IMG/VR virus record: IMGVR_UViG_3300031688_000081
Location: 1 to 29,963 of that record
Direction: 5' to 3' (one strand)
DNA from: a virus
Length of the DNA: 29,963 bases
Both the position numbers and the translations under genes were made by a program. The notes under the pieces were generated by a model. The model searched no databases and had not been told where the DNA came from. It worked only from the letters and a program-made list of their open reading frames with translations. Shown piece after piece: positions 1-29,963 of the stretch (position 1 is its first letter; each line of letters starts with the position of its first letter).

Positions 1-1282
1 AAGGCAATCCGCGCTTCCGCATGTCTTCTTTGGATTCTATTTTTAATTTACCGCTTGAGTTAAATGAGTAACGCGGTGAAACCAATTCAGCGAACAAAGA
101 TTCATCTCTGGGAATCTTACAATCCCTCGCTTCGAGGAATGCTTTCATCTTGAACCAGAGCTCTGCTCGTAAATTAATGTAAGTGCCTCTCATAGACGGA
201 CTCTCAGCGACATTAATCCCGCGTACCGGGACATCGAGCTCACGAAGTCTGTCTACAACGCCTGCACCCAGACCGATACTATCGACTAGAATTTCTACAG
301 GGCGTTTTGAAGGAGGTGTTTCCTGATATTTGGCGTTGACGATACCCGTCAATTCCATCAAGTCTTTACCTTTCCAATCCAGTAGCCAGTTAATAATCGT
401 ACCCTGGCGTTCCGCGAGAACTGATTTGTCAGCGCCCATTCGGGCTACATCAAGTCCCCATATTTTCGGGGTGTCTTCTGCCATTACGACATCACGATTT
501 TGGGCATCTTCAACTAAAGCCATTGAAATAACCGTGTCATCATCAGTCTTAGGAAACTCTCCCAAGACCCGGACAAAATACGCAGAAGAGTCTTCCCCGT
601 ACTTGACAGCCATCTCTTTTACGAATGCTTTACTGACCCTGGGAGAATCAACACAACTAACGTGCATTGTTTTCCATTCAGCTTTTAATCGATTGTGGGA
701 ATCAAAGAAACTACCACTGGTCCGAACCGGGTTACCCAGCATTAAAGTTGACGCGCTCTCACCAGACATCGATCCCGCAGCAGCCTCAAAGACCTTCTCA
801 GGGATACCAGAAGCCTCATCGATGACCAATAGAACGTTATCTGAGTGAACCCCTGCCATTGCCTCTGGAGTCTCTGCCCTGGCCGTTCTACAACTAATAA
901 AGGCATCTTGTGGAGCAGATACCAAAACGATCCGATCCGAGGTCACTTCGACTAAATCTTGCAGAGCCTGGGGAAGCTTTTTAATCCAGCTTTTTACTTC
1001 AGAGAACAAAGCGTCAAATAATTGACTACTTGTCGGAGCCGTTAGAACAATTTTACAGGGGTGCTTCATAAGGAAGTACCAGATGATCACCCAGGACGCA
1101 GCAGCAGACTTACCCACTCCATGCCCTGCCCGTACACTGATCTTTCGATCCTTGTTCTGTACGCTCTTTAAAAGCTCTTCCTGCCAGGGGTCTGGCTTAA
1201 TCTTCAAAACCTGCCGAACAAATAAGGAGGGGTTATTCTGGTATTTCTTAACGAAAACTAAGAATGGATTATTGTTCGGCAA
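1..1282 (-). CDS. terL: Terminase large subunit (C-terminus beyond window)
   Basis: ATPase-nuclease motor that cuts concatemeric phage DNA and pumps it into the prohead. 427 codons are visible and the gene runs off the left edge. Visible motifs: Walker A GHGVGKS at residues 53-59, Walker B LLVIDEA at about 151-157, coupling motif GNP at 183-185, then an RNase H-like nuclease start GLDVAR at 276-281 with acidic D278 and a second Asp at D334 (ILVDS). No in-frame ATG occurs before residue 72, which lies after Walker A, so I place the start at a TTG (1282-1280) 8 bases after GAGGA. This start overlaps the terS stop by 14 bases. It is the last gene of the leftward packaging group; portal and capsid genes should follow outside the window. 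Family assignment is firm; the start codon is inferred. Confidence 0.93.
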   Translation of the reverse strand, partial: MPNNNPFLVFVKKYQNNPSLFVRQVLKIKPDPWQEELLKSVQNKDRKISVRAGHGVGKSAAASWVIIWYFLMKHPCKIVLTAPTSSQLFDALFSEVKSWIKKLPQALQDLVEVTSDRIVLVSAPQDAFISCRTARAETPEAMAGVHSDNVLLVIDEASGIPEKVFEAAAGSMSGESASTLMLGNPVRTSGSFFDSHNRLKAEWKTMHVSCVDSPRVSKAFVKEMAVKYGEDSSAYFVRVLGEFPKTDDDTVISMALVEDAQNRDVVMAEDTPKIWGLDVARMGADKSVLAERQGTIINWLLDWKGKDLMELTGIVNAKYQETPPSKRPVEILVDSIGLGAGVVDRLRELDVPVRGINVAESPSMRGTYINLRAELWFKMKAFLEARDCKIPRDESLFAELVSPRYSFNSSGKLKIESKEDMRKRGLP

Positions 1283-1736
1283 TGACAGCTTCCTCTGTGT
1301 ACGTCTCTGCTATACCCAGCTCCCGGATCGCCTCTAAGTGAAGCTGAGTCACATCAGTGACATTCAAATCCACCCTAGTCTTATCACCCCAAGAATTCGG
1401 GTCCATTCGTGAAGCTAACCACTTTCGGGCATCAATACTGACCTTCGCCGCGTGAGCATCGATAATCCCCGCGTCAACATCGTTAATGATGTTTTCAATC
1501 CTTTCGGCATGCCATAGAGCTCGGTTCTGTCTCGCCTGGTCAAAACGTTGGGATAGGTCCGGGTCAGACTTAATGCGATTCATAAAGCCATTGGTCGTGA
1601 CGTTAAAAGTCCCACAGATGACAGTAGTAGACTCGCCAGCGGCCATAAGCTTAAAGGCCGTCTCCCAGAAATCAGGATCGCCAAATAGCTTCCAGGTGGA
1701 TATCGTCTTAGCTTTCTTCTTCGGGCTGCCCGGCAT
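1269..1736 (-). CDS. terS: Terminase small subunit
   Basis: DNA-recognition subunit of the packaging enzyme, which selects the phage genome at its pac or cos site. 155 aa from the chosen start. The middle has a helix-turn-helix-like pattern (residues ~35-70), and the C-terminal half carries AKVSIDARKWLASRM followed by WGDK, a motif I know from phage small terminases. It lies directly upstream of terL and overlaps it by 14 bases. An upstream ATG at 1757 has no ribosome binding site; the ATG at 1736 has GGAG 7 bases before it and gives a normal basic N-terminus (MPGSPKKKAK). Overlaps the lipoprotein gene by 29 bases. Confidence 0.85.
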   Translation of the reverse strand: MPGSPKKKAKTISTWKLFGDPDFWETAFKLMAAGESTTVICGTFNVTTNGFMNRIKSDPDLSQRFDQARQNRALWHAERIENIINDVDAGIIDAHAAKVSIDARKWLASRMDPNSWGDKTRVDLNVTDVTQLHLEAIRELGIAETYTEEAVIAEQ

Positions 1737-1918: not shown

Positions 1919-1960
1919 TCAGTAACCTGGCTTGCGAACTCGCTTCTTTTTACCTGGCAT
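1919..1960 (-). CDS. 13-residue basic micro-ORF
   Basis: ATG to TGA encodes MPGKKKRVRKPGY. It is preceded by TAAGGAGG, a nearly perfect anti-SD match 5 bases before the ATG, the best ribosome binding site I see in the window. The stop codon lies 1 base before the lipoprotein ATG, so the ORF could serve to couple translation of the lipoprotein gene. Seven of the 13 residues are Lys or Arg. It could be a real micropeptide or a leader peptide. Support comes only from the RBS and spacing. Confidence 0.45.
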   Translation of the reverse strand: MPGKKKRVRKPGY

Positions 1961-1990
1961 ATCAGCCTCCTTATTCAATCTAAAAACCTA

Positions 1991-2230
1991 ACGTAGGAAA
2001 AAATATGAAAACGTAGGAAAACGTAGGAAAACGTAGGATTCAGAAACAGACCTCTAAAACAGACCTCTAAACAGACCTATCCGTCCTGCCTCGAATAAAA
2101 CTATGAAAAACTATGATTCAGAAACACACCTCTAAACACACCTCTAAACACACCTATTCGCCCTACCTCGAATAAAACTCCCTGTAATACTCCCTATTCG
2201 CCCTACATTTAACCCTATTCGCCCTACCCC
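1991..2230. repeat. Nested tandem repeat array upstream of terS
   Basis: Non-coding stretch between the 59-aa gene and the micro-ORF, made of short repeats inside a larger repeat of about 78 bp. Block A (1991-2102): five 10-bp units, four of them starting ACGTAGG and one degenerate, then three CAGACCT words (2047, 2060, 2072), then CCTCGAATAAAACT (2089). Block B (2103-2179): ACTATG words, three CACACCT words (2125, 2137, 2149), then the same CCTCGAATAAAACT (2166). CCTATTCGCCCTAC occurs at 2153, 2193 and 2214. The 10-bp phase of the A-tracts suggests a curved DNA segment. Closeness to terS makes a pac/cosB-type packaging site a reasonable inference. Confidence 0.75.
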
Positions 2231-2245
2231 GATTAAAGGTAGCTA

Positions 2246-2425
2246 CTATTTCTTCCAACTTGATCTAGCAGCAACCTGATCTTTCTTTGATAACTGTCCG
2301 AAATGAAACAAGGGTTTCGATGCAGCCGTGTGAGCCTTGCCAGAGTGTAGAGATCCGTCAGACATCCTATGCGTAACGCCCTTGTGCTCTGTACCACCCT
2401 TTCGGTAATGCTTTACACCTTTCAT
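2246..2425 (-). CDS. Small basic phage protein, 59 aa
   Basis: ATG to TAG, 59 residues starting MKGVKHYRKGG, rich in Lys, His and Gly, with a C-terminal LFHFGQLSKKDQVAAR segment. Its ATG overlaps the lipase stop in an ATGA arrangement, and AGAGG precedes it, so it is translationally coupled to the lipase gene. The pattern (MKGVxHY..G.EH.G.TH.M.DG..H.G..H....K.LFHF) resembles short conserved proteins I know from marine podovirus genomes near the terminase; this is recall, not a search. Function unknown; the charge could fit nucleic-acid or virion binding. Confidence 0.75.
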   Translation of the reverse strand: MKGVKHYRKGGTEHKGVTHRMSDGSLHSGKAHTAASKPLFHFGQLSKKDQVAARSSWKK

Positions 2426-3111
2426 ACAACCTCTAAAGAACGTTGGAGGTAGAGCTCCATAGAATGGTCCGAAACTGAGTCCTTAATCGAGAAGTCCTTC
2501 TCAACAAACTCGAGATCCGGGTTTAAATAATTAACCCCGTCATTCGCCAGGTATAGAAAATCCTGGTTAGAAGAGCCAACCGTGTAACAAAATCTCGGAA
2601 CCCTAGTCACGATGTCACTTCCACTACACACAGATAAGGCAGAGCCTTGTGGAAACCTCTCCTTCGGCCTCTTTAAAAACACCCGTGGCTTGCCAAAGCA
2701 AACCAAGGTCGAATCAATGCCAGCCTGTAATGCCATCAAATGCGTTAATTCAGCCTGGGCAGCACCCAATGAATGACCCGTGATAACCAACCGCTTAGAA
2801 TTCCCACCCCGGTTGAATAATATTTTCTTGAAAATTTTCAGAATTTTTTTCTGAACACTCTTATGAGCAATCGCAAATCCAGGGTGAACCCAGTTCCTCA
2901 AGTAATACACAGGAGGAAAGGCAAAAATATCTAACAAAATATCCCTCGGTTCCGCAGAGCCCTTGAACACAAGGTAATCAACTCCCTCACACTCCTTCCA
3001 ATAAAACGTAGTACTCGTAAACCTATTCTCAAATTTATGCGCTATCTGACCAGCCATGTCCTGGTATGCCGCGAGCGAGAGAGACGCGCATGTCGAAAGT
3101 TCTGGGTGCAT
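2422..3111 (-). CDS. Class-3 lipase-like alpha/beta hydrolase
   Basis: 229 aa. The lipase nucleophile elbow GHSLGA lies at residues 112-117 (Ser114). Asp166 (SGSDIVTRVP) and His216 (DHSMELYL) are at the right spacing to complete a Ser-Asp-His triad of the lipase_3 fold. An earlier segment with LVFKGSAEPRDILLD and HPGFA also fits this family. There is no signal peptide, so the enzyme would act in the cytoplasm or be released at lysis; it is coupled to a 59-aa gene and sits upstream of the packaging genes. Substrate unknown; membrane lipid or ester hydrolysis during lysis or entry is inference. The region upstream carries a perfect 13-bp inverted repeat. Confidence 0.8.
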   Translation of the reverse strand: MHPELSTCASLSLAAYQDMAGQIAHKFENRFTSTTFYWKECEGVDYLVFKGSAEPRDILLDIFAFPPVYYLRNWVHPGFAIAHKSVQKKILKIFKKILFNRGGNSKRLVITGHSLGAAQAELTHLMALQAGIDSTLVCFGKPRVFLKRPKERFPQGSALSVCSGSDIVTRVPRFCYTVGSSNQDFLYLANDGVNYLNPDLEFVEKDFSIKDSVSDHSMELYLQRSLEVV

Positions 3112-15588: not shown

Positions 15589-15891
15589 ATGACTTCAGAA
15601 TTTATTCATAGAAGAAAGTTTTCAGCCGATTTAGGTATTACAGACGGCGTTTTTGATGGATGGAAAAAACGTCATTGGAATGAAGGAAAGCATTACATAA
15701 TTATAGGCAGACAAATTTTGGTGAACTTGCGGGAGGTCAACCAATGGCTAGAGAAAGAAACTATAGAAGACTTGCTACCGGAGTCCATCAAAGAGACAAC
15801 CGAATCTACATCGAATGGGGCCGGGGCAAAAAGGAATACCTCGATAAATCGTACTCGCCGACCAATGCCAGGGACATTAAGTCAGCGATAA
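15589..15891 (+). CDS. Excisionase-like protein
   Basis: 100 aa from ATG 15589, with AAGGGG upstream. The N-terminal ~60 residues (FIHRRKFSADLGITDGVFDGWKKRHWNEG then HYIIIGRQILVNLREVNQWLEKE; short pieces) have the winged-helix excisionase/MerR pattern. The C-terminal 45 residues are polar and overlap the integrase start by 148 bases in another frame, unusually long. It would bend attachment-site DNA and direct excision. Function inferred from pattern and from its place just before int. Confidence 0.6.
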   Translation: MTSEFIHRRKFSADLGITDGVFDGWKKRHWNEGKHYIIIGRQILVNLREVNQWLEKETIEDLLPESIKETTESTSNGAGAKRNTSINRTRRPMPGTLSQR

Positions 15892-16895
15892 ATTTACTCA
15901 AGCAAAGAGAAGAAGAGTCGCGCTTTGGGATTTCAGAAAATAATAGCGATGATCCTTATCTTTACGATTTCCGGTATGCGATGGAAGAGTACCTAGAGAT
16001 CGTTGATGCGGAATTGAAAACAGCTCCCAAAACTAGACGCTTTCTTGAGCGTATATGGTTGCCTCATTTTAAAGGTCGGACTCTCGGCAGCATCGGGCAG
16101 TTTGAAATTAAGAATGTTATTAAGTCGTGGAAGAAAAAAGATGGGGGTAAATATTCAACATCTGAAAAGAAAAATCGACTAATCGCCTGCACTCAGCTTT
16201 TCAAGAATTTTAGTATTTATCCAAACCCTTGCTCTGGCATTGCAGTGCCAAAGGTCCAAACGCTTCCAATTGATCGATATCTACCTGATGAGAGAACAAC
16301 GATCATTTCTGCGGCAAATAGATATGATTATATAAGGCCAGGAGATTTCCAATTGACTCAAGTTTTGGGGTTCGCCTGCGGATTCAGACCTGGCGAGATA
16401 TTTGGTTTACGGAAATTAAGTTTTGAGGGTGAGCTGATCCACGCCGACAAACAAGTGACGGAGGATGGCGTTCAACATTTAAAGACGGGTAAGGATCGGT
16501 GGGTCTATATCCCATCCTGGGCGCGACCCTATATAGATAAATATTTGAAAGGGTTGGAGGATGATGAGTGGTTGTTTGTGAACCACAACGGAGGGGTGTT
16601 AAAAGACAGAACTCCTATCTACTCACGACATAAAGCATTGCATGTAGAAATGAATATCCCTTTAAAGCGAGAAGGTTATGCAGAGAGAGATATGTATACC
16701 AACAGGCACACTAGAGCGTCAGAGCTTCTCTCTACTGGCGTTTCGGTTGGTGACGGAGCCAATCAGCTAGGTCATAGCCCTGAGATGTTCCAACGTATCT
16801 ATGCAAGGTTTTCGGATGAATTTAGCGGGAAGGAAGACTATAGCCATTTAGAGGGAATTTCACTTGAAAAGAATGGCTTGAGGCTAGTGGAGTGA
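15744..16895 (+). CDS. int: Tyrosine-recombinase integrase
   Basis: 383 aa. All catalytic residues are visible: Arg215 (CGFRPGE), Lys247 (HLKTGKDR), His322 and Arg324 (NRHTRASELL), His344 (QLGHS), and nucleophile Tyr353 (RIYARF). The N-terminal ~70 residues would bind arm-type sites, the middle part (~75-170) core sites. GAGGT precedes ATG by 7 bases. It is the last gene of the rightward operon, and the attP site lies 74 bases after its stop. It integrates the phage at a tRNA-Glu gene and, with the excisionase, excises it. Confidence 0.95.
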   Translation: MARERNYRRLATGVHQRDNRIYIEWGRGKKEYLDKSYSPTNARDIKSAINLLKQREEESRFGISENNSDDPYLYDFRYAMEEYLEIVDAELKTAPKTRRFLERIWLPHFKGRTLGSIGQFEIKNVIKSWKKKDGGKYSTSEKKNRLIACTQLFKNFSIYPNPCSGIAVPKVQTLPIDRYLPDERTTIISAANRYDYIRPGDFQLTQVLGFACGFRPGEIFGLRKLSFEGELIHADKQVTEDGVQHLKTGKDRWVYIPSWARPYIDKYLKGLEDDEWLFVNHNGGVLKDRTPIYSRHKALHVEMNIPLKREGYAERDMYTNRHTRASELLSTGVSVGDGANQLGHSPEMFQRIYARFSDEFSGKEDYSHLEGISLEKNGLRLVE

Positions 16896-16902
16896 AACAC
16901 GA

Positions 16903-16924
16903 TGTCACTCCCATGTCACTCCCA
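16903..16924 (+). repeat. Left arm-type repeats of attP
   Basis: Two perfect tandem copies of TGTCACTCCCA (16903-16913, 16914-16924). The same word recurs on the other side of the core at 17098-17107 and 17109-17119. Probable binding sites of the integrase N-terminal domain. Confidence 0.7.
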
Positions 16925-16968
16925 TTGCCCTATTTGAAACATAAGTCACTGATTTTAAACAAGTAAAG

Positions 16969-20555: not shown

Positions 20556-22994
20556 TTAGCCGCCTAAAATGCCGCCCAAAGTAAAGCCGCCGCTGCCCCT
20601 ATTTATAGTAGCCTTGGTATCATTGCCACCAAACAAGAAATCTTTGCCTGCATTGTAGAGATTGCCGATATCATCAAAAGCACCTACTGCAGAAGAAATA
20701 TCCCCGGCTAACCCACGATCTACAGTCTCTTCAGTTCTTTCACTTTTCGGTGCGGTGGAAAATAAACGAATCAGATTGTCAATCATGTCCTGGTCGTAAT
20801 CAGTCCCCGCTAAGAACTCATTAAAATTGAAATCCTTCTCTCGCTGGGATCGAGCGTCGAGGCTGTCACCTAAACCAGCAAAATCATCCATATAGCCGCC
20901 GTAAGCATCTGTTCCACTCTCAAAAGCATTAAGCAGGTTCTGAGCTGCCCTAAGTTGGTTGAGCTGGTTGTCTTGAGCCGCTCTAAGATCTGTGTTCTGA
21001 TTCATCCGCTCAGAATCCTGCCCAAGAGCCATTGAATCTCTAACAGTTTGAATGTCAGCCGTTTGATTGGCTTCTTGCGCTTGCATCGAGCGATCTGCGT
21101 CTTGCCCGTAAAGGTCTGCTGCTGCGTTAAAACCGCGATCTCTAAGGTCAGCAACTGTTCTCGCTGCGACGTCTTGGGAGGCTCGGTTTGATTCCGCATT
21201 TACCAAAGCCGCTCGGTCCCCGCCATACGCCCCTGCCATTGTTGCGTTGGAATTATTCTGAAGCACCTGCATTTGTCTCGCTCTCTCAATGTCTTTGAGA
21301 GAAGTGTCTATCACATTTTTGGTGTAAGGATTCATGTACGGATCTAAGTTCGTACCCGAAAATTGCTCGGCAACAATATCGTCGATGCGTTTTCTACCAG
21401 CAGTCTGAAGTGGCTTGGCTTGCGCGTCTACAGATGCACCAGTTATCGGATCGATTGAAATATCACTTATGCCTCTTGACGAAGCAAGCGAGTCATCGAA
21501 AATAGCCTGACCCGGACGATCTGTAATATTATTTCGGATCATTGTGGCGAGTGTTGTCTGGTCAGCATTCAGCCCGGTGTTAAATCGATTTCCGGTGTAA
21601 TCGCTATAGCCGCTGTTTAATCGACCAATGAGATTGTCGGTTACGTCTTGTGACCCCATCAGACTTGCCGCGCCTTTGCGAAACAGTGGATCTGTCGATC
21701 TGTCAGTGATCCTGCTGCTACTAAAAAAATCCGATAAACTCATACCGCCTCCTGTTGCTAATTTTGGCCCACCGATTTCGGGCAGATCTGGACCCTCAAC
21801 TTCTGGCCCATCGATTTCTGGCAAACTTGTAATAGGCACACATTCGCCATTTACATTTCTTACCTGCCCAAGTGGGCAACTGTTATCTGTTCCTGGTCCA
21901 TCTGGTCCTACGACTGTAGGAATATCTACACACTCACCATTTATCCTGACCTGCCCAAGTGGGCAACTATCATCTGTTCCTGGTCCATCTGTTCCTGGTC
22001 CATCTGTTCCTGGTCCTGCTCCACCCGGTCCTGCTCCTGCTGGTCCTGCTCCTGCTGGTCCTGCTCCTGCTGGTCCTGCCCCTGCTGGTCCTGTTCCTGC
22101 TGGTCCTGCTCCTGCTGGTCCTGTTCCTGCTGGTCCTGTTCCTGCTGGTCCTGTTCCTGCTGGTCCTGCTGGTCCTGCTGGTCCTGCTCCAGGTAGTGTT
22201 CCTGTTCCTGGTACTGGTACGTCAGAATCAAAAGCGCCATCTGGACCAGCAGCCGGAGCTCGCGCTAAAATATCTGCCGCGTCAGGATTGTCTGGCATAC
22301 CTTGCAGAATTTTAATAAGAACGTCATACGGGAAAGGTTGCCCGTCATCAGTTATATAGTTGTCTGAAATATCTGCTGGAGTGAGCTCTCGATCATTTGA
22401 CTGCGACAAGATCATGTCGGTAGCCCCAGCCTGGTCATCTCCGTATAAATCTACGATTTGATCTACTGCTTGCGTTGGGGTACCCGCAGTGTCAAAAATA
22501 TCTTGGACCTGCTTATTGCGGTCATTAGTGTTATCCGCACCATTAAAAATTTCAGTTGCCGCAGAGCCGACAGGATTAGTTCCAGTGGTAGCAGTTCCTA
22601 CACTGGCTGCGGGAGCTCCAGATACAGGACCAGCTTGAGGGTCATTACTGAACGGTGAGAACGTTCCAGTTGTCTTAACGCCATTATCTGGGGTCGTAAA
22701 GTCTGAATTTTTTCCTGCATTAAGAACCAAATTTATTAAATTTTGATCCCCAACGTTGGTGGCGTTTTGCAAAAGGTCATTGTAGGTTGCATCCTGACCT
22801 TCAGCCGCGCCTTCTTGTGCTCCAGGTGAATTAGCAGATGAATCCATCTGATTGAAATAATTTAATTGCTGACTAACTTTCTCCGCTGGAGTGAGAGGCG
22901 GCAAATCACGGCCACCACCAGCAGAAAACCTTTTCATAAGGTTAAAAGCCGAAACAGCCACACCAATTGGCCCTAAACCTATCTCTAAGGGCAT
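20556..22994 (-). CDS. 812-aa virion protein with GPAG(T/A) repeat domain
   Basis: Three parts: an N-terminal region (1-260) with a hydrophobic start; a repeat region (about 269-323) of GPAGT/GPAGA pentapeptides followed by PGTDG repeats and two Cys motifs CPLGQVRxNGECV (about residues 340-355 and 368-382); and a C-terminal helical region (430-812) rich in Ala, Gln, Asp and Asn. The C-terminal part resembles an internal/ejection protein. The 15-bp DNA repeats are near perfect, so the repeat number can vary. It overlaps the 68-aa gene by 1 base. Not a true collagen, since Gly is not every third residue. Confidence 0.55.
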   Translation of the reverse strand: MPLEIGLGPIGVAVSAFNLMKRFSAGGGRDLPPLTPAEKVSQQLNYFNQMDSSANSPGAQEGAAEGQDATYNDLLQNATNVGDQNLINLVLNAGKNSDFTTPDNGVKTTGTFSPFSNDPQAGPVSGAPAASVGTATTGTNPVGSAATEIFNGADNTNDRNKQVQDIFDTAGTPTQAVDQIVDLYGDDQAGATDMILSQSNDRELTPADISDNYITDDGQPFPYDVLIKILQGMPDNPDAADILARAPAAGPDGAFDSDVPVPGTGTLPGAGPAGPAGPAGTGPAGTGPAGTGPAGAGPAGTGPAGAGPAGAGPAGAGPAGAGPGGAGPGTDGPGTDGPGTDDSCPLGQVRINGECVDIPTVVGPDGPGTDNSCPLGQVRNVNGECVPITSLPEIDGPEVEGPDLPEIGGPKLATGGGMSLSDFFSSSRITDRSTDPLFRKGAASLMGSQDVTDNLIGRLNSGYSDYTGNRFNTGLNADQTTLATMIRNNITDRPGQAIFDDSLASSRGISDISIDPITGASVDAQAKPLQTAGRKRIDDIVAEQFSGTNLDPYMNPYTKNVIDTSLKDIERARQMQVLQNNSNATMAGAYGGDRAALVNAESNRASQDVAARTVADLRDRGFNAAADLYGQDADRSMQAQEANQTADIQTVRDSMALGQDSERMNQNTDLRAAQDNQLNQLRAAQNLLNAFESGTDAYGGYMDDFAGLGDSLDARSQREKDFNFNEFLAGTDYDQDMIDNLIRLFSTAPKSERTEETVDRGLAGDISSAVGAFDDIGNLYNAGKDFLFGGNDTKATINRGSGGFTLGGILGG
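21839..21993. repeat. Duplicated ~65-bp Cys-motif segment
   Basis: Two copies (about 21839-21904 and 21929-21993) of a segment containing CCTGCCCAAGTGGGCAACT and CTGTTCCTGGTCCATCTG. Each encodes CPLGQVR..NGECV with a PGTD tail. A recent duplication inside the 812-aa virion gene. Confidence 0.7.
22027..22188. repeat. 15-bp minisatellite (GPAG(T/A) coding)
   Basis: Nine consecutive 15-bp units GGTCCTGCTCCTGCT with only C/T changes at two positions (GCT/GTT, GCT/GCC), followed by three 9-bp units GGTCCTGCT. In frame with the 812-aa gene and strictly phase-preserving (multiples of 3). Neighbouring GGTCCATCTGTTCCT units continue it on the left. Confidence 0.85.
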
Positions 22995-25742: not shown

Positions 25743-27677
25743 TTATGCGATTGCTAAAAATATGTATGAACCGCCAGACACGTTTATTGTGCTGGAGCCG
25801 TTCGTAGTTAAATTAAATCCACCTGCGTATGGGGCTATGTAATCAGTGTTAGTAACTTGAGCGTTTGCGGAGTTTAGTAATAGGTATGGATCATTCGAGC
25901 CTGCTGCTGAGATTCCGCGAAACGAATCCCACAAATACCAATCTGCAACCGCGTCATAACGCTTAATAAGAATGAATCTAGCAGTCCCACTAAAGCCACA
26001 GGCGATGTTGGTTGAGTTAGCGTTTGCCGTGTAGCTGCCGACCTTGCTTACTCCCGCTAGTGTGGCGAAGAGCCGATACGTCCAATTCCCCGCATAGAAT
26101 GTTGAGTAAGTAAATTGAGTGTTAGTCGGAGCTACGCCTCCCCACCATGCCCCATTTGCGTAAAAAGCTCTAGCCGCACTAGTATTAAAGTAGAGCGCAT
26201 AATCAAGGCCTATAGCAGCAGAGTAACTATACCAATTATCTACAGAGGTATTTGATTTGCCAATAATTAACTCAGGAGCTACACCCAAATTATGCTTAAT
26301 AGTTTGTACATTAGTCCCTGTTAAAGCAGTCGTGTGAGAAACCACATCCATAAAGCCTTGGGCGCGTTTAAACATCCAGCTTTGGTATGGAGGTGGTTCG
26401 TTCCCGCCATACCACCCGTCCTGATAATCAAACCTAGCGTTAGAATCGCCTATTGGAGTAGTAGTAGTGTTATAAGACGTTCTTTTGCCCATTAAGCGAG
26501 ACGAAATTTTCCAACCATCTCCACCAGTACTTCTCCACAAAGCAAAATCTACTGGAAAAGGCGATGGGAAATTGGGGTTACCGTTTAATTTATCATCGGA
26601 AATATAGACCTCAGTCCCATCCGTAGGAGTCTTCATTGGCATACGAATAGCCATGTAGATGTATGTAGCGTTTGTGCTTTGCCCTCCAGTAGGAAAGTAC
26701 ATACCAGTGGCTGTAGGGCCGGGACTAGATGTAGTTGCGGCCTCTGCATTAGCCAAGTTTGCACGGAAAACTTGTGCGCTAGAAACTCCGTATGTATCAT
26801 TAGGGGCACTCCATCCGCGCATAGTGTCGTACATTTCCCAATTATCTGCACTTGATATTTTTTTCTTTATCACCCACTGAGGTTCAAACCCTAGATCAAT
26901 ATGCTTCGCAGTTGCCGAGCCGTCAGTCGTATAACTCCCAACCTTAACCATAGACTCATCGCCATCGTCTCCAAACGCAGCCTCATCTCCGAATAGATAC
27001 ATGACGTAATCTTGATTTTCATAATTTACAGTGCCATCTCTAACGAGAGATACTGTAGTGCTAGTTGGGTTTGCTGTTAAATACGCAAATGCTCCATAAT
27101 TGTTTTCTGCAAAAGTTTCGTTTAAATATAAATAATCGTCATTCGCAAAACTTTTATGCCAGACGTACCATCTATTATCATTGTCTAAATTTTTAATTAT
27201 AATCATGGCCGGAACGGAGCCAAGATTATGCGCTACAGTAATTCCTGCGGCATTTGAACTTCCAGAATATTTGACGCAATCAAAAAATTTCTCAGCCTTG
27301 CGGAATGTATATGAGGCGTATGTGCTGTTTACCAAATTGAAGCCCCACTTCAAGACATTAAAGCCTGTCGTTCCTGCGGCGGGAAAAGAAAAATAATCAG
27401 AAACATCTGCTGCTACGTCTGTTGAATTACTGCTTAATTTTTTAGTTGGCCCATTTACAGTATTAATTAAAGCATGAGAATCTAATGTCCCACGGGTTTT
27501 AAGCCATACCAAGCCTCCTTCATCAGAAAGAGCAATACCATTGTTGATGTATTGATTTGTTGAATTGTAATTACTATTGCCCGTATACAAATAAGTCGAG
27601 AAGACATCCTCGACATAGAGCTTGTCTCCACCTGCGTTTCCTGCTGATGCTGAAAGTGCTTTTGCTAATTTACCCAT
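25743..27677 (-). CDS. Tail fibre / receptor-binding protein, 644 aa
   Basis: From ATG 27677, which overlaps the previous stop by 1 base (TAATG). N-terminal segment DVFSTYLYTGNSNYN..NNGIALSDEGGLVWLKTRG is a pattern I know from marine phage fibres. Four copies of a beta module (about residues 150-173, 260-288, 462-485, 559-588) share LG..P..III K...  ..NW Y.W(D/H). Rich in Asn, Thr, Ser and Tyr, no membrane segments. Likely the host-binding fibre. Confidence 0.65.
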   Translation of the reverse strand: MGKLAKALSASAGNAGGDKLYVEDVFSTYLYTGNSNYNSTNQYINNGIALSDEGGLVWLKTRGTLDSHALINTVNGPTKKLSSNSTDVAADVSDYFSFPAAGTTGFNVLKWGFNLVNSTYASYTFRKAEKFFDCVKYSGSSNAAGITVAHNLGSVPAMIIIKNLDNDNRWYVWHKSFANDDYLYLNETFAENNYGAFAYLTANPTSTTVSLVRDGTVNYENQDYVMYLFGDEAAFGDDGDESMVKVGSYTTDGSATAKHIDLGFEPQWVIKKKISSADNWEMYDTMRGWSAPNDTYGVSSAQVFRANLANAEAATTSSPGPTATGMYFPTGGQSTNATYIYMAIRMPMKTPTDGTEVYISDDKLNGNPNFPSPFPVDFALWRSTGGDGWKISSRLMGKRTSYNTTTTPIGDSNARFDYQDGWYGGNEPPPYQSWMFKRAQGFMDVVSHTTALTGTNVQTIKHNLGVAPELIIGKSNTSVDNWYSYSAAIGLDYALYFNTSAARAFYANGAWWGGVAPTNTQFTYSTFYAGNWTYRLFATLAGVSKVGSYTANANSTNIACGFSGTARFILIKRYDAVADWYLWDSFRGISAAGSNDPYLLLNSANAQVTNTDYIAPYAGGFNLTTNGSSTINVSGGSYIFLAIA

Positions 27678-28600
27678 TAGACGTAGCTTCCTGTGTAAGC
27701 ACCGTGGAGAACACTTCCAACTTTCCAAAGAACTATAGTGTCCTTAGCAGTAAGAGTAGGAGCGACATTTCCAGCAGATGTTACCCACTGCATTGTGGGC
27801 CAAGTAACTGTGTAAGAAGCCCCCGACTGAAGCATAAGGACAATTGCATCACCAGAAACCAAGGAGTCGCTAAAAGTTACATTAGCACTAACTGTTTTGG
27901 TCTGAACGCCCCCATTCGTAGCTAAGAAAGCTGTACCAGATAGAGCGTAAACTGTATCTACCATTGTCTTGCCAGTTAGAGTGGCAAGTCCTACTTCACT
28001 CACTAAAGTTGAGCTGCTGCCTTTTGGCAATAGCATTGTATTGGTAATATTTTCACTGTGGGGCTGTGACTTGACCGTTTGCCCATGAGTATTGGCGTGG
28101 CAGTTAAGTTTAATTTGTCCTTCTACGCTAGAACCATCGCCTTTCACTTCTAATATTTGTGTGGCCGGGGACAATACAATATTGCCCGAAGTTGTAGAAG
28201 TTGTTCCGCTCAGAACAGGTGAAGTTAAAGTTTTGTTAGTCAGAGTCTGTGTGCCAGTAAGAGTAACGTCTCCCGCGCCACTGGCATTAAGCTGCGTTTG
28301 GATGTTTGAAGTCACTCCGTCCAGGTAATTTATTTCAGTCCCGGTAGCTGTGAGAGCGACACCGCCGAAGGTAATAGTTCCCGAAGCAGAAAGTGTTGTA
28401 AATGCTCCAGTGCTTTTCGTTGCGGCACCTATCGTTGCACCGTCAATCGAGCCAGAATTTATATCGATACCAGTGACAGGTGTGCCTCCGCTAAGAAGGG
28501 AATCCGTAGATGTCCAATTCGCGTTTAGGTTTCCACCCCAGACCCCCGAAGAACCTCCAACAGTTGGTAGTACAAAAGAATAATTTGGTGTTGATGCCAT
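27677..28600 (-). CDS. Tail fibre protein, 307 aa
   Basis: N-terminus MASTPNYSFVLPTVGGSSGVWGG..NANW is typical of virion-attached fibre bases. Then fibre repeats IDGATIGAATKSTGAFTTL and TLTGTQTLTNKTLTSPVLSG, common in phage fibres, and a C-terminal beta domain ending LWKVGSVLHGAYTGSYV. Low in charged residues. Directly upstream of the larger fibre gene, so the two may assemble together; this one probably the proximal part. Confidence 0.75.
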   Translation of the reverse strand: MASTPNYSFVLPTVGGSSGVWGGNLNANWTSTDSLLSGGTPVTGIDINSGSIDGATIGAATKSTGAFTTLSASGTITFGGVALTATGTEINYLDGVTSNIQTQLNASGAGDVTLTGTQTLTNKTLTSPVLSGTTSTTSGNIVLSPATQILEVKGDGSSVEGQIKLNCHANTHGQTVKSQPHSENITNTMLLPKGSSSTLVSEVGLATLTGKTMVDTVYALSGTAFLATNGGVQTKTVSANVTFSDSLVSGDAIVLMLQSGASYTVTWPTMQWVTSAGNVAPTLTAKDTIVLWKVGSVLHGAYTGSYV

Positions 28601-28612
28601 AATAATTTACCT

Positions 28613-29173
28613 CTAATTTATTGGTGTCCAGGTGTCCGTTGGGTTAGCTATTGCAGACCACGTTGGGTCGGTTACAACGGGAATCAGCTCCCACTTGAAC
28701 CTACCAGTTGCGACCAGAGTTGTGATGCTATAAATCGGTTCAACGCCTGATTCGGTTGTGACCGCGCCTAAAGCATAAACAGTCGTGACCGAAGTGATTG
28801 CTGCTGAACTTTCTAAAATGGGTCGAGCACTAGCAACTAGACTTGTGCTGCTCGTTATATTTGCTTCGCCCTCAAATACATATCCAGGCGAGTTGTTGAC
28901 AACCATGAGCGTTGAGCTCGTGATGTGCGCTTCGCCTTCGTTGAGTATTTCTCCTGCCGCAACCAACGCAGTAGATGACGTAATAGCCGCCGCAGAATTG
29001 AGAAGAAAACCACCACTCGCGGCAATTGTCGTTGAGGACAGAATTGCAGCCTCTCCATCCACCCTGGGATGAAACTCGCCATAATTACCGTTCCCAAAAA
29101 GGAAACTTCCATAGCCATCAATGACGGGCGCTTGATATACGCCAGTACCAAAATTACCACTGCCATATGACAC
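28613..29173 (-). CDS. Repeat-containing virion fibre-like protein, 186 aa
   Basis: N-terminus is Gly/Tyr/Phe-rich (MSYGSGNFGTGVYQAP, YGSFLFGNGNYGEF). Residues ~40-160 have about six degenerate ~20-residue repeats with core ITSSTxLVAxG, typical of a beta-solenoid or fibre shaft. C-terminus WTPIN. No enzyme motif. Lies between two fibre-type genes in the virion operon. Function inferred as structural. Confidence 0.55.
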   Translation of the reverse strand: MSYGSGNFGTGVYQAPVIDGYGSFLFGNGNYGEFHPRVDGEAAILSSTTIAASGGFLLNSAAAITSSTALVAAGEILNEGEAHITSSTLMVVNNSPGYVFEGEANITSSTSLVASARPILESSAAITSVTTVYALGAVTTESGVEPIYSITTLVATGRFKWELIPVVTDPTWSAIANPTDTWTPIN

Positions 29174-29179
29174 TGATTT

Positions 29180-29563
29180 TTACGTCATCGTTGCAGTGAG
29201 TGAGCCTGCTGGAATTCTGAAGATGTCACCAGTAGTAATAGCTTTGCTCGTTGTAAGTGCAGAATGGTATAAAAGATTTCCACTGCTTGCGGCATCCATT
29301 ATCCCAACGTGCGTTACCGTACCCCATGCATTTCCCGCAGCAGCGTATTCAATCGCAGCCGTGTTCGTTGCTACGTTCGTAGTCACTGAAAATGCAGCCG
29401 TGACCCTGGCGTAATTTGTACCAGAGACTTCAGTCCCAGTATTTGCGTCAGTTGGGTCAGACGTATAAAGCGCCAGGTAGTGTGTCGTTGGTGCGGTGTA
29501 CGCTGTTGATTTCAGCGTATGGTTTAATAGTTTGTTTTCGAGATAGCTGCTTGTTCCGGCCAT
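29180..29563 (-). CDS. Phage fibre/decoration-type protein, 127 aa
   Basis: Starts MAGTSSYLENKLLNHTLK and contains THYLALYTSDPTDANTGTEVSG..YARV and VGIMDAASSGNLLYHSALTTSKAITTGD, a conserved small phage structural family as I know it (sometimes called tail fibre or capsid fibre protein). All-beta pattern, no signal or membrane part. The stop of the upstream adaptor gene shares its first base. Structural role likely; exact place in the virion unknown. Confidence 0.7.
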   Translation of the reverse strand: MAGTSSYLENKLLNHTLKSTAYTAPTTHYLALYTSDPTDANTGTEVSGTNYARVTAAFSVTTNVATNTAAIEYAAAGNAWGTVTHVGIMDAASSGNLLYHSALTTSKAITTGDIFRIPAGSLTATMT

Positions 29564-29963
29564 TATCCAAAGCTCCTAGCTCGCATTCGGGGGGTAGTCC
29601 CACCAAATCGGCTTTTTTCGTCTTCTTGCGTAAGTGAATTAAATATGTCCCGATAGAGGGTCTGCCATAAAACGATTCGTTCATCGTCTTTCAAATATGG
29701 GGCTGTGTGGACCAGTGATCCGTAAAGATAGATTTCTGGGGATTTTGTTAAAAGCCAGTTGTAATCGGAATCCGCAGTCATTGCAGGAATTTTTTCGTAA
29801 AACGCAATTTCGCATTCAACTGCTGAAGATGGCGTAGGGAAAACTTGGAAAGATTCACCAATAACTGAATACAGTCTCGGTCTTCCTGCGGTATCTCCCC
29901 GGCGTTCTCGATTCTGATTTTGCTCTTCTGTGCTTACTTGTTCTAAAGCAACTGGAGGAGTTG
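29563..29963 (-). CDS. Head-tail adaptor protein (N-terminus beyond window)
   Basis: About 132 C-terminal codons are visible; the gene runs off the right edge with no start in the window. Segment FPTPSSAVECEIAFYEKIPAM followed by SDYNWLLTKSPEIYLYGSLVHTAPYLKDDERIVLW (given in parts: NWLLTKSPEIYLYG; APYLKDDERI; LWQTLYRD) matches phage adaptor proteins of P22-like and marine podoviruses, which bind the portal. Its presence here means portal and capsid genes should lie just beyond this edge and join to the terminase end in the complete genome. Confidence 0.65.
   Translation of the reverse strand, partial: TPPVALEQVSTEEQNQNRERRGDTAGRPRLYSVIGESFQVFPTPSSAVECEIAFYEKIPAMTADSDYNWLLTKSPEIYLYGSLVHTAPYLKDDERIVLWQTLYRDIFNSLTQEDEKSRFGGTTPRMRARSFG

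What the first reader, a model, noticed from the sequence alone, without database searches (positions are those of the whole stretch)
1991..2230. Nested repeat array whose words change together between blocks
Two ~78-bp blocks have the same layout but different words: ACGTAGG vs ACTATG and CAGACCT x3 vs CACACCT x3, with identical anchors GATTCAGAAAC and CCTCGAATAAAACT. Three copies inside one block are identical to each other but differ as a group from the other block. Simple duplication plus random mutation does not give this; slippage or conversion after divergence, or selection for words that match one another, is needed. The first sub-array has a strict 10-bp phase with A-tracts, as in bent DNA. 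The array sits a few hundred bases upstream of terS, where pac/cosB sites with repeated TerS-binding motifs occur in other phages.
Basis: partly seen in the sequence, partly recalled or inferred. Interest (0 to 1): 0.68.

Follow-up and report, generated by a model that had tools for sequence, protein, structure and literature searches.

The report
Young slippage-made repeat array beside terS
A short stretch of non-coding DNA just ahead of a phage's DNA-packaging genes has grown by repeated copying errors into a nested, bent repeat array that close relatives lack, so it is most likely a young, still-changing minisatellite rather than a conserved DNA-packaging signal.

Summary
The repeats are real. 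The array (1985-2242) fills the non-coding gap between a 59-aa ORF and a 13-codon mini-ORF upstream of a lipoprotein-like ORF and an Sf6-type terS. Two ~77-bp blocks share anchors and differ in words, as described. One degenerate copy (AATATGAA, about 2002) sits inside block 1, so homogenisation is incomplete.

A sister contig (L025, 98.8% identical) lacks exactly one 13-bp unit of block 1 and has a private change in the middle unit of block 2. That 13-bp loss is the only indel in 2.66 kb, so unit turnover is seen directly. Two close relatives, L028 and L004, have 8-9 bp here instead of about 285 bp; five others also lack the array. The words were not found in INPHARED phages, plasmids, GTDB genomes or other IMG/VR contigs.

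The 10-bp sub-array is predicted to be the most curved 50 bp of the window; relatives show nothing comparable upstream of terS. No promoter, Rfam family, significant RNA fold or IHF site was found.

Best reading: a lineage-specific minisatellite made by tandem duplication and slippage, incidentally bent. A conserved pac/cosB site is not supported; a recently recruited bent packaging or regulatory site is not excluded.

The parts
1985..2242 (.). Whole nested repeat array, non-coding, between the 59-aa ORF and the mini-ORF
   Evidence: absent in L028 and L004
1990..2038 (.). 10-bp sub-array AACGTAGGAA (4 good copies, 1 degenerate copy AATATGAAAA); predicted strong static bend
   Evidence: TRF; word positions; curvature
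2028..2102 (.). Block 1: ACGTAGG, GATTCAGAAAC, CAGACCT x3, CCTATCCGTCCTGC, CCTCGAATAAAACT
2105..2179 (.). Block 2: ACTATGA, GATTCAGAAAC, CACACCT x3, CCTATTCGCCCTAC, CCTCGAATAAAACT
2059..2071 (.). The 13-bp unit of block 1 that is missing in sister contig L025
2180..2237 (.). Third sub-array: CTCCCTGTAATA-type words and two more copies of CCTATTCGCCCTAC
2246..2425 (-). 59-aa ORF (MKGVKHYRKGG...) directly upstream of the array in transcript order
   Evidence: homologues in 22 IMG/VR loci; position
1919..1960 (-). 13-codon mini-ORF MPGKKKRVRKPGY behind an AAGGAGG ribosome-binding site; same peptide in L028
1708..1917 (-). 69-aa lipoprotein-like ORF
   Evidence: no Pfam or PHROG match
1269..1736 (-). 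terS, Sf6-type small terminase
   Evidence: PF20901 E 3.3e-15; PHROG 1482; PDB 4dyc Sf6 gene 1 protein
1..1282 (-). terL, large terminase, cut off by the window end
   Evidence: PHROG 2 terminase large subunit; 86% identical to L004

Best explanation
The array is a young intergenic minisatellite, specific to this phage lineage. A spacer appeared between the stop codon of the 59-aa ORF and the ribosome-binding site of the mini-ORF, where relatives have 8-9 bp. Short words linked by A/T-tracts were then amplified by replication slippage or unequal recombination. One ~77-bp stretch was duplicated, the copies diverged, and continued gain and loss of units inside each block made the inner copies alike within a block but different between blocks (concerted evolution by birth and death). 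The single-copy anchors were not subject to this turnover and stayed identical. The predicted bend follows directly from a 10-bp unit that carries one A-tract. Consequences: the mini-ORF/lipoprotein/terS group no longer lies directly behind the upstream ORF, and a bent non-coding patch lies about 250-500 bp upstream of terS. Shown here: the structure, its absence in relatives, the unit-number change between two strains. Inferred: the molecular mechanism, the order of events, and the lack of an essential function.
For: Structure far beyond chance. Sister contig L025, 98.8% identical, differs by exactly one 13-bp unit, the only indel in 2.66 kb, plus a private change in one inner unit. Two close relatives have 8-9 bp at the same junction and five more lack the array. 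Words not found elsewhere. Substitution alone gives the same change in three copies with P about 0.001, and in a toy simulation the block-wise pattern never arose without slippage but reached 1.6-7.6% with 1-3 slippage events per substitution. A leftover degenerate unit shows incomplete homogenisation. No coding frame, promoter, Rfam match, inverted repeat or significant RNA fold.
Against: Only two genomes carry the array, so the time course is thin. The array is kept in both despite 18 substitutions in the surrounding 2.66 kb. Neutral spacers of this length are unusual in the tightly packed genes of the relatives. The source of the first spacer sequence is unknown: its words do not resemble the ancestral junction more than shuffles do. 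The strong predicted bend next to terS fits a function as well as chance.
Confidence: 0.72

Rival explanations
1. The array is a packaging-initiation site of this lineage: TerS rings select the intrinsically bent, repeated DNA, as proposed for SPP1-like phages, and TerL cuts nearby.
For: Position upstream of an Sf6-type terS; highest predicted 50-bp curvature of the window; SPP1 pac has direct repeats and bent DNA near terS (PMC4737164), and lambda cos has a repeated TerS site and static bends (PMC4856287). TerS is less conserved than TerL between window and relatives (45-61% against 86%), so the recognition site may have changed too.
Against: Relatives with the same gene order package without it and have no comparable bend. 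P22 pac lies inside terS (PMC9611059), and SF6 TerS does not need the pac repeats (PMC4737164). The array is 250-500 bp from terS with two ORFs between. Both contigs assemble straight through it, which speaks against a fixed end there. No IHF-like site in 1700-2600 with up to one mismatch.
Confidence: 0.14
2. The array is a regulatory leader: inserted between the upstream ORF and the mini-ORF it separates their translation or modulates transcription of the terS group.
For: It sits exactly between the stop codon and the ribosome-binding site, which abut in L028 and L004; the ribosome-binding site AAGGAGG is intact; bent DNA often lies near promoters (general knowledge).
Against: No sigma-70-like promoter or terminator in the array, no inverted-repeat operators, no Rfam match, RNA fold z-scores only -1.3 and -0.9. 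Unit number varies between strains.
Confidence: 0.09
3. Assembly artefact: short reads misassembled over a repeat.
For: Metagenomic contigs; repeats of 75-78 bp are difficult for short reads; the 13-bp difference between the two contigs could be a collapse.
Against: Two contigs that differ by 18 substitutions over 2.66 kb show the same nested structure, 95% identical over the array, and 258 bp is short relative to a read pair.
Confidence: 0.05

Closest known systems
Intergenic minisatellites / VNTR loci of bacteria
   Same: Head-to-tail short units, unit number differing between near-identical strains, no coding frame.
   Different: Two levels of repeat (10-13 bp units inside a ~77-bp block) with block-specific words; in a phage, next to terS.
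Tandem repeats of Borg elements (PMC9879509)
   Same: Fast-evolving, recently formed, independently arisen repeats with A-enriched character; many are intergenic.
   Different: Borg elements are large archaeal replicons with many such regions; here there is one intergenic array in a phage of about 36 kb.
SPP1/SF6 pac region (PMC4737164)
   Same: Direct repeats and bent DNA close to terS.
   Different: SPP1 pac spans the terS promoter and gene start and is 80% identical in the related phage SF6; this array lies further upstream and is absent in relatives.
Lambda cosB with R sites and I1/I2 bends (PMC4856287)
   Same: A word repeated three times plus a static bend near terS.
   Different: No IHF-like site found, no conservation in relatives; the TerS is of the headful Sf6 type.

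Membership tests
Minisatellite / VNTR locus | Head-to-tail copies of a short unit | tested here: met
   TRF periods 10, 12, 13 and 77 bp
Minisatellite / VNTR locus | Unit number varies between closely related strains | tested here: met
   One 13-bp unit fewer in L025; only two strains, reads not available
Minisatellite / VNTR locus | Not part of a reading frame | tested here: met
   No ORF with a usable start spans the array
pac site of Sf6/P22-type headful phages | Phage has a TerS of this type | tested here: met
   Pfam Sf6_terminase and PDB 4dyc
pac site of Sf6/P22-type headful phages | Site kept in relatives with homologous terminases | tested here: not met
   Array absent in L028, L004, L027, L030, L031, L032, L034
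pac site of Sf6/P22-type headful phages | Packaging series start at the site; TerS recognises it | not testable with these tools
   No reads or protein available
SPP1-type pac region | Intrinsically bent DNA | tested here: met
   Predicted only; highest 50-bp curvature of the window
SPP1-type pac region | Spans the terS promoter and the start of terS | tested here: not met
   Array ends 249 bp upstream of the terS start, with two ORFs between; no promoter match in it
Lambda-type cosB | IHF site between TerS-binding repeats | tested here: not met
   No site with up to one mismatch in 1700-2600
Lambda-type cosB | Adjacent cosN with fixed cohesive ends | not testable with these tools
   Virion ends unknown; both contigs run through the array
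Operator or promoter array | Inverted-repeat operators or a promoter in the array | tested here: not met
   0 inverted repeats, no sigma-70-like site

The most novel reading that the evidence does not exclude
Slippage built, within one phage lineage, a strongly bent repeat element next to terS that has been recruited as a new packaging-initiation (or terS-regulating) site, so that a DNA-shape signal arose from scratch while relatives use another site.
Probability: 0.12. Interest if true: 0.62.

Novelty: new member of a known kind. Interest (0 to 1): 0.3.

Why it matters
It shows tandem-repeat birth and block-wise homogenisation in progress in a small phage genome, with the empty site in relatives and a unit-loss variant both on record, and it shows how slippage of a 10-bp unit can produce bent DNA without selection. 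If TerS did use the bend, it would be a case of a packaging signal arising de novo.

Tried and rejected
Coding repeat: no ORF with a usable start spans the array. Structured RNA: no Rfam match, fold z-scores -1.3 and -0.9. Promoter or terminator: none inside. Origin by copying of the ancestral stop/ribosome-binding-site junction: similarity no better than shuffles. Host or plasmid origin: no match for the tested sequence or word. Block variants in other phages through a gapped anchor pattern: only the sister contig. Prophage relatives by TerS in GTDB genomes: 70 pattern matches, none confirmed. IHF site: none nearby. Replication origin: the GC-skew trend follows gene orientation and shows no switch at the array.

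Full report
Observation. The window is a phage record. On its - strand a lipase-like gene (2422-3111), a 59-aa ORF (2246-2425), a 13-codon mini-ORF (1919-1960), a lipoprotein-like ORF (1708-1917), terS (1269-1736) and terL (from 1282, running off the window start) follow one another. The repeat array lies between the 59-aa ORF and the mini-ORF. TRF gives the higher-order period of 77 bp and inner periods of 10, 12 and 13 bp. 118 of 253 9-mer positions belong to repeated words, against 1.3 in shuffles. The two blocks differ at 9 of 74 sites, three of them the same column in all three inner copies.

The array reads best on the - strand as words separated by T-tracts: ATTCGAGGTAGGGCGAATAGGTGTG, AGAGGTGTG twice, CTGAATCATAG, TCATAG; then ATTCGAGGCAGGACGGATAGGTCTG, AGAGGTCTG twice, CTGAATCCTACG, and TCCTACG repeated. 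Each inner repeat copies the 3' end of the word before it, as tandem duplication would give (read from the sequence). Inside the last sub-array one unit (AATATGAAAA on the + strand) resembles the block-2 word rather than its neighbours, so homogenisation is not complete.

Sister contig. L025 (IMGVR_UViG_3300031167_000141) is 98.8% identical over 2.66 kb. Its array lacks exactly one 13-bp unit in block 1 and has one substitution in the middle unit of block 2; the 13-bp loss is the only indel in the whole stretch. This is unit turnover seen directly, unless it is an assembly collapse. A toy simulation gave the block-wise pattern in 0 of 1500 runs without slippage, 1.6% at one slippage per substitution and 7.6% at three.

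Relatives. L028 has the same gene order with the 59-aa ORF 78% identical, an identical mini-ORF peptide, the lipoprotein ORF 83%, TerS 61% and TerL 86%; between stop codon and mini-ORF start it has only GAGGCTAT. L004/L029 has 9 bp there. L027, L031 and L032 carry other short genes and no long gap; L030 and L034 have the lipase directly followed by the lipoprotein ORF. A BLAST of the array against eight related contigs found only L025, plus one 20-bp chance-level match. Patterns from the words or the anchors found only L025 in IMG/VR, and one word pattern found nothing in GTDB genomes. BLAST found nothing in plasmids and, in INPHARED phages, no match at E 0.01 and only chance-level matches at E 10.

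DNA shape. With a dinucleotide wedge model the most curved 50 bp of the window start at 1991 and the most curved 100 bp at 1960. With a simple A-tract phase model the array ranks second for 60-bp windows but is not outstanding for 100 bp. None of the relatives has a comparable 50-bp bend within 1.2 kb upstream of terS. The model parameters were entered from memory and the result is a prediction only.

Packaging. TerS matches Pfam Sf6_terminase and the solved Sf6 gene 1 protein. The review PMC9611059 lists Sf6 and P22 as headful phages and places the P22 pac site inside terS; my recollection, not checked here, is that the Sf6 pac site also lies inside terS (Leavitt et al. 2013). SPP1 pac has direct repeats and spans the terS promoter and gene start, but the repeats had little effect on TerS binding and the model favours DNA shape (PMC4737164). 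In lambda, static bends near cos matter (PMC4856287). So a bent repeat near terS is a fair lead. However, this one is absent in relatives with homologous terminases, lies 250-500 bp away with two ORFs between, and both contigs assemble straight through it.

Verdict. The array is best read as a lineage-specific minisatellite. I put 0.72 on this, 0.14 on a recently recruited packaging site, 0.09 on a regulatory role and 0.05 on an artefact. Limits: only two genomes carry it, no reads were available, and the packaging tests (virion ends, TerS binding) could not be run.

Noticed in passing
1888-1960: The 73 bp right next to the array (mini-ORF and start of the lipoprotein ORF) are 97% identical to L028, synonymous sites included, whereas the following DNA is only 50-80% identical. 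This suggests a recombination patch or a nucleotide-level constraint ending at the array border.
   Followed up: partly
1-2662 and 27377-29963: Sister contig L025 overlaps both ends of the window and bridges them by 5954 bp, so the two together give a circular map of about 35.9 kb.
   Followed up: partly
16902-16925: ATGTCACTCCC repeated 2.2 times just behind the integrase gene (15744-16895), a candidate for part of the attachment site.
   Followed up: no
21971-22190: In-frame 15-bp repeat coding for a Gly-Pro-Ala-rich (collagen-like) stretch in the 812-aa protein 20556-22994, the most repetitive place of the window.
   Followed up: no
2422-3111: Class 3 lipase (PF01764) kept upstream of the terS group in related contigs; its role is untested.
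   Followed up: no
L004:3445-4004: Relatives L004 and L028 carry several extra short basic ORFs between the lipase and the 59-aa ORF that the window lacks, so this interval gains and loses small genes.
   Followed up: no
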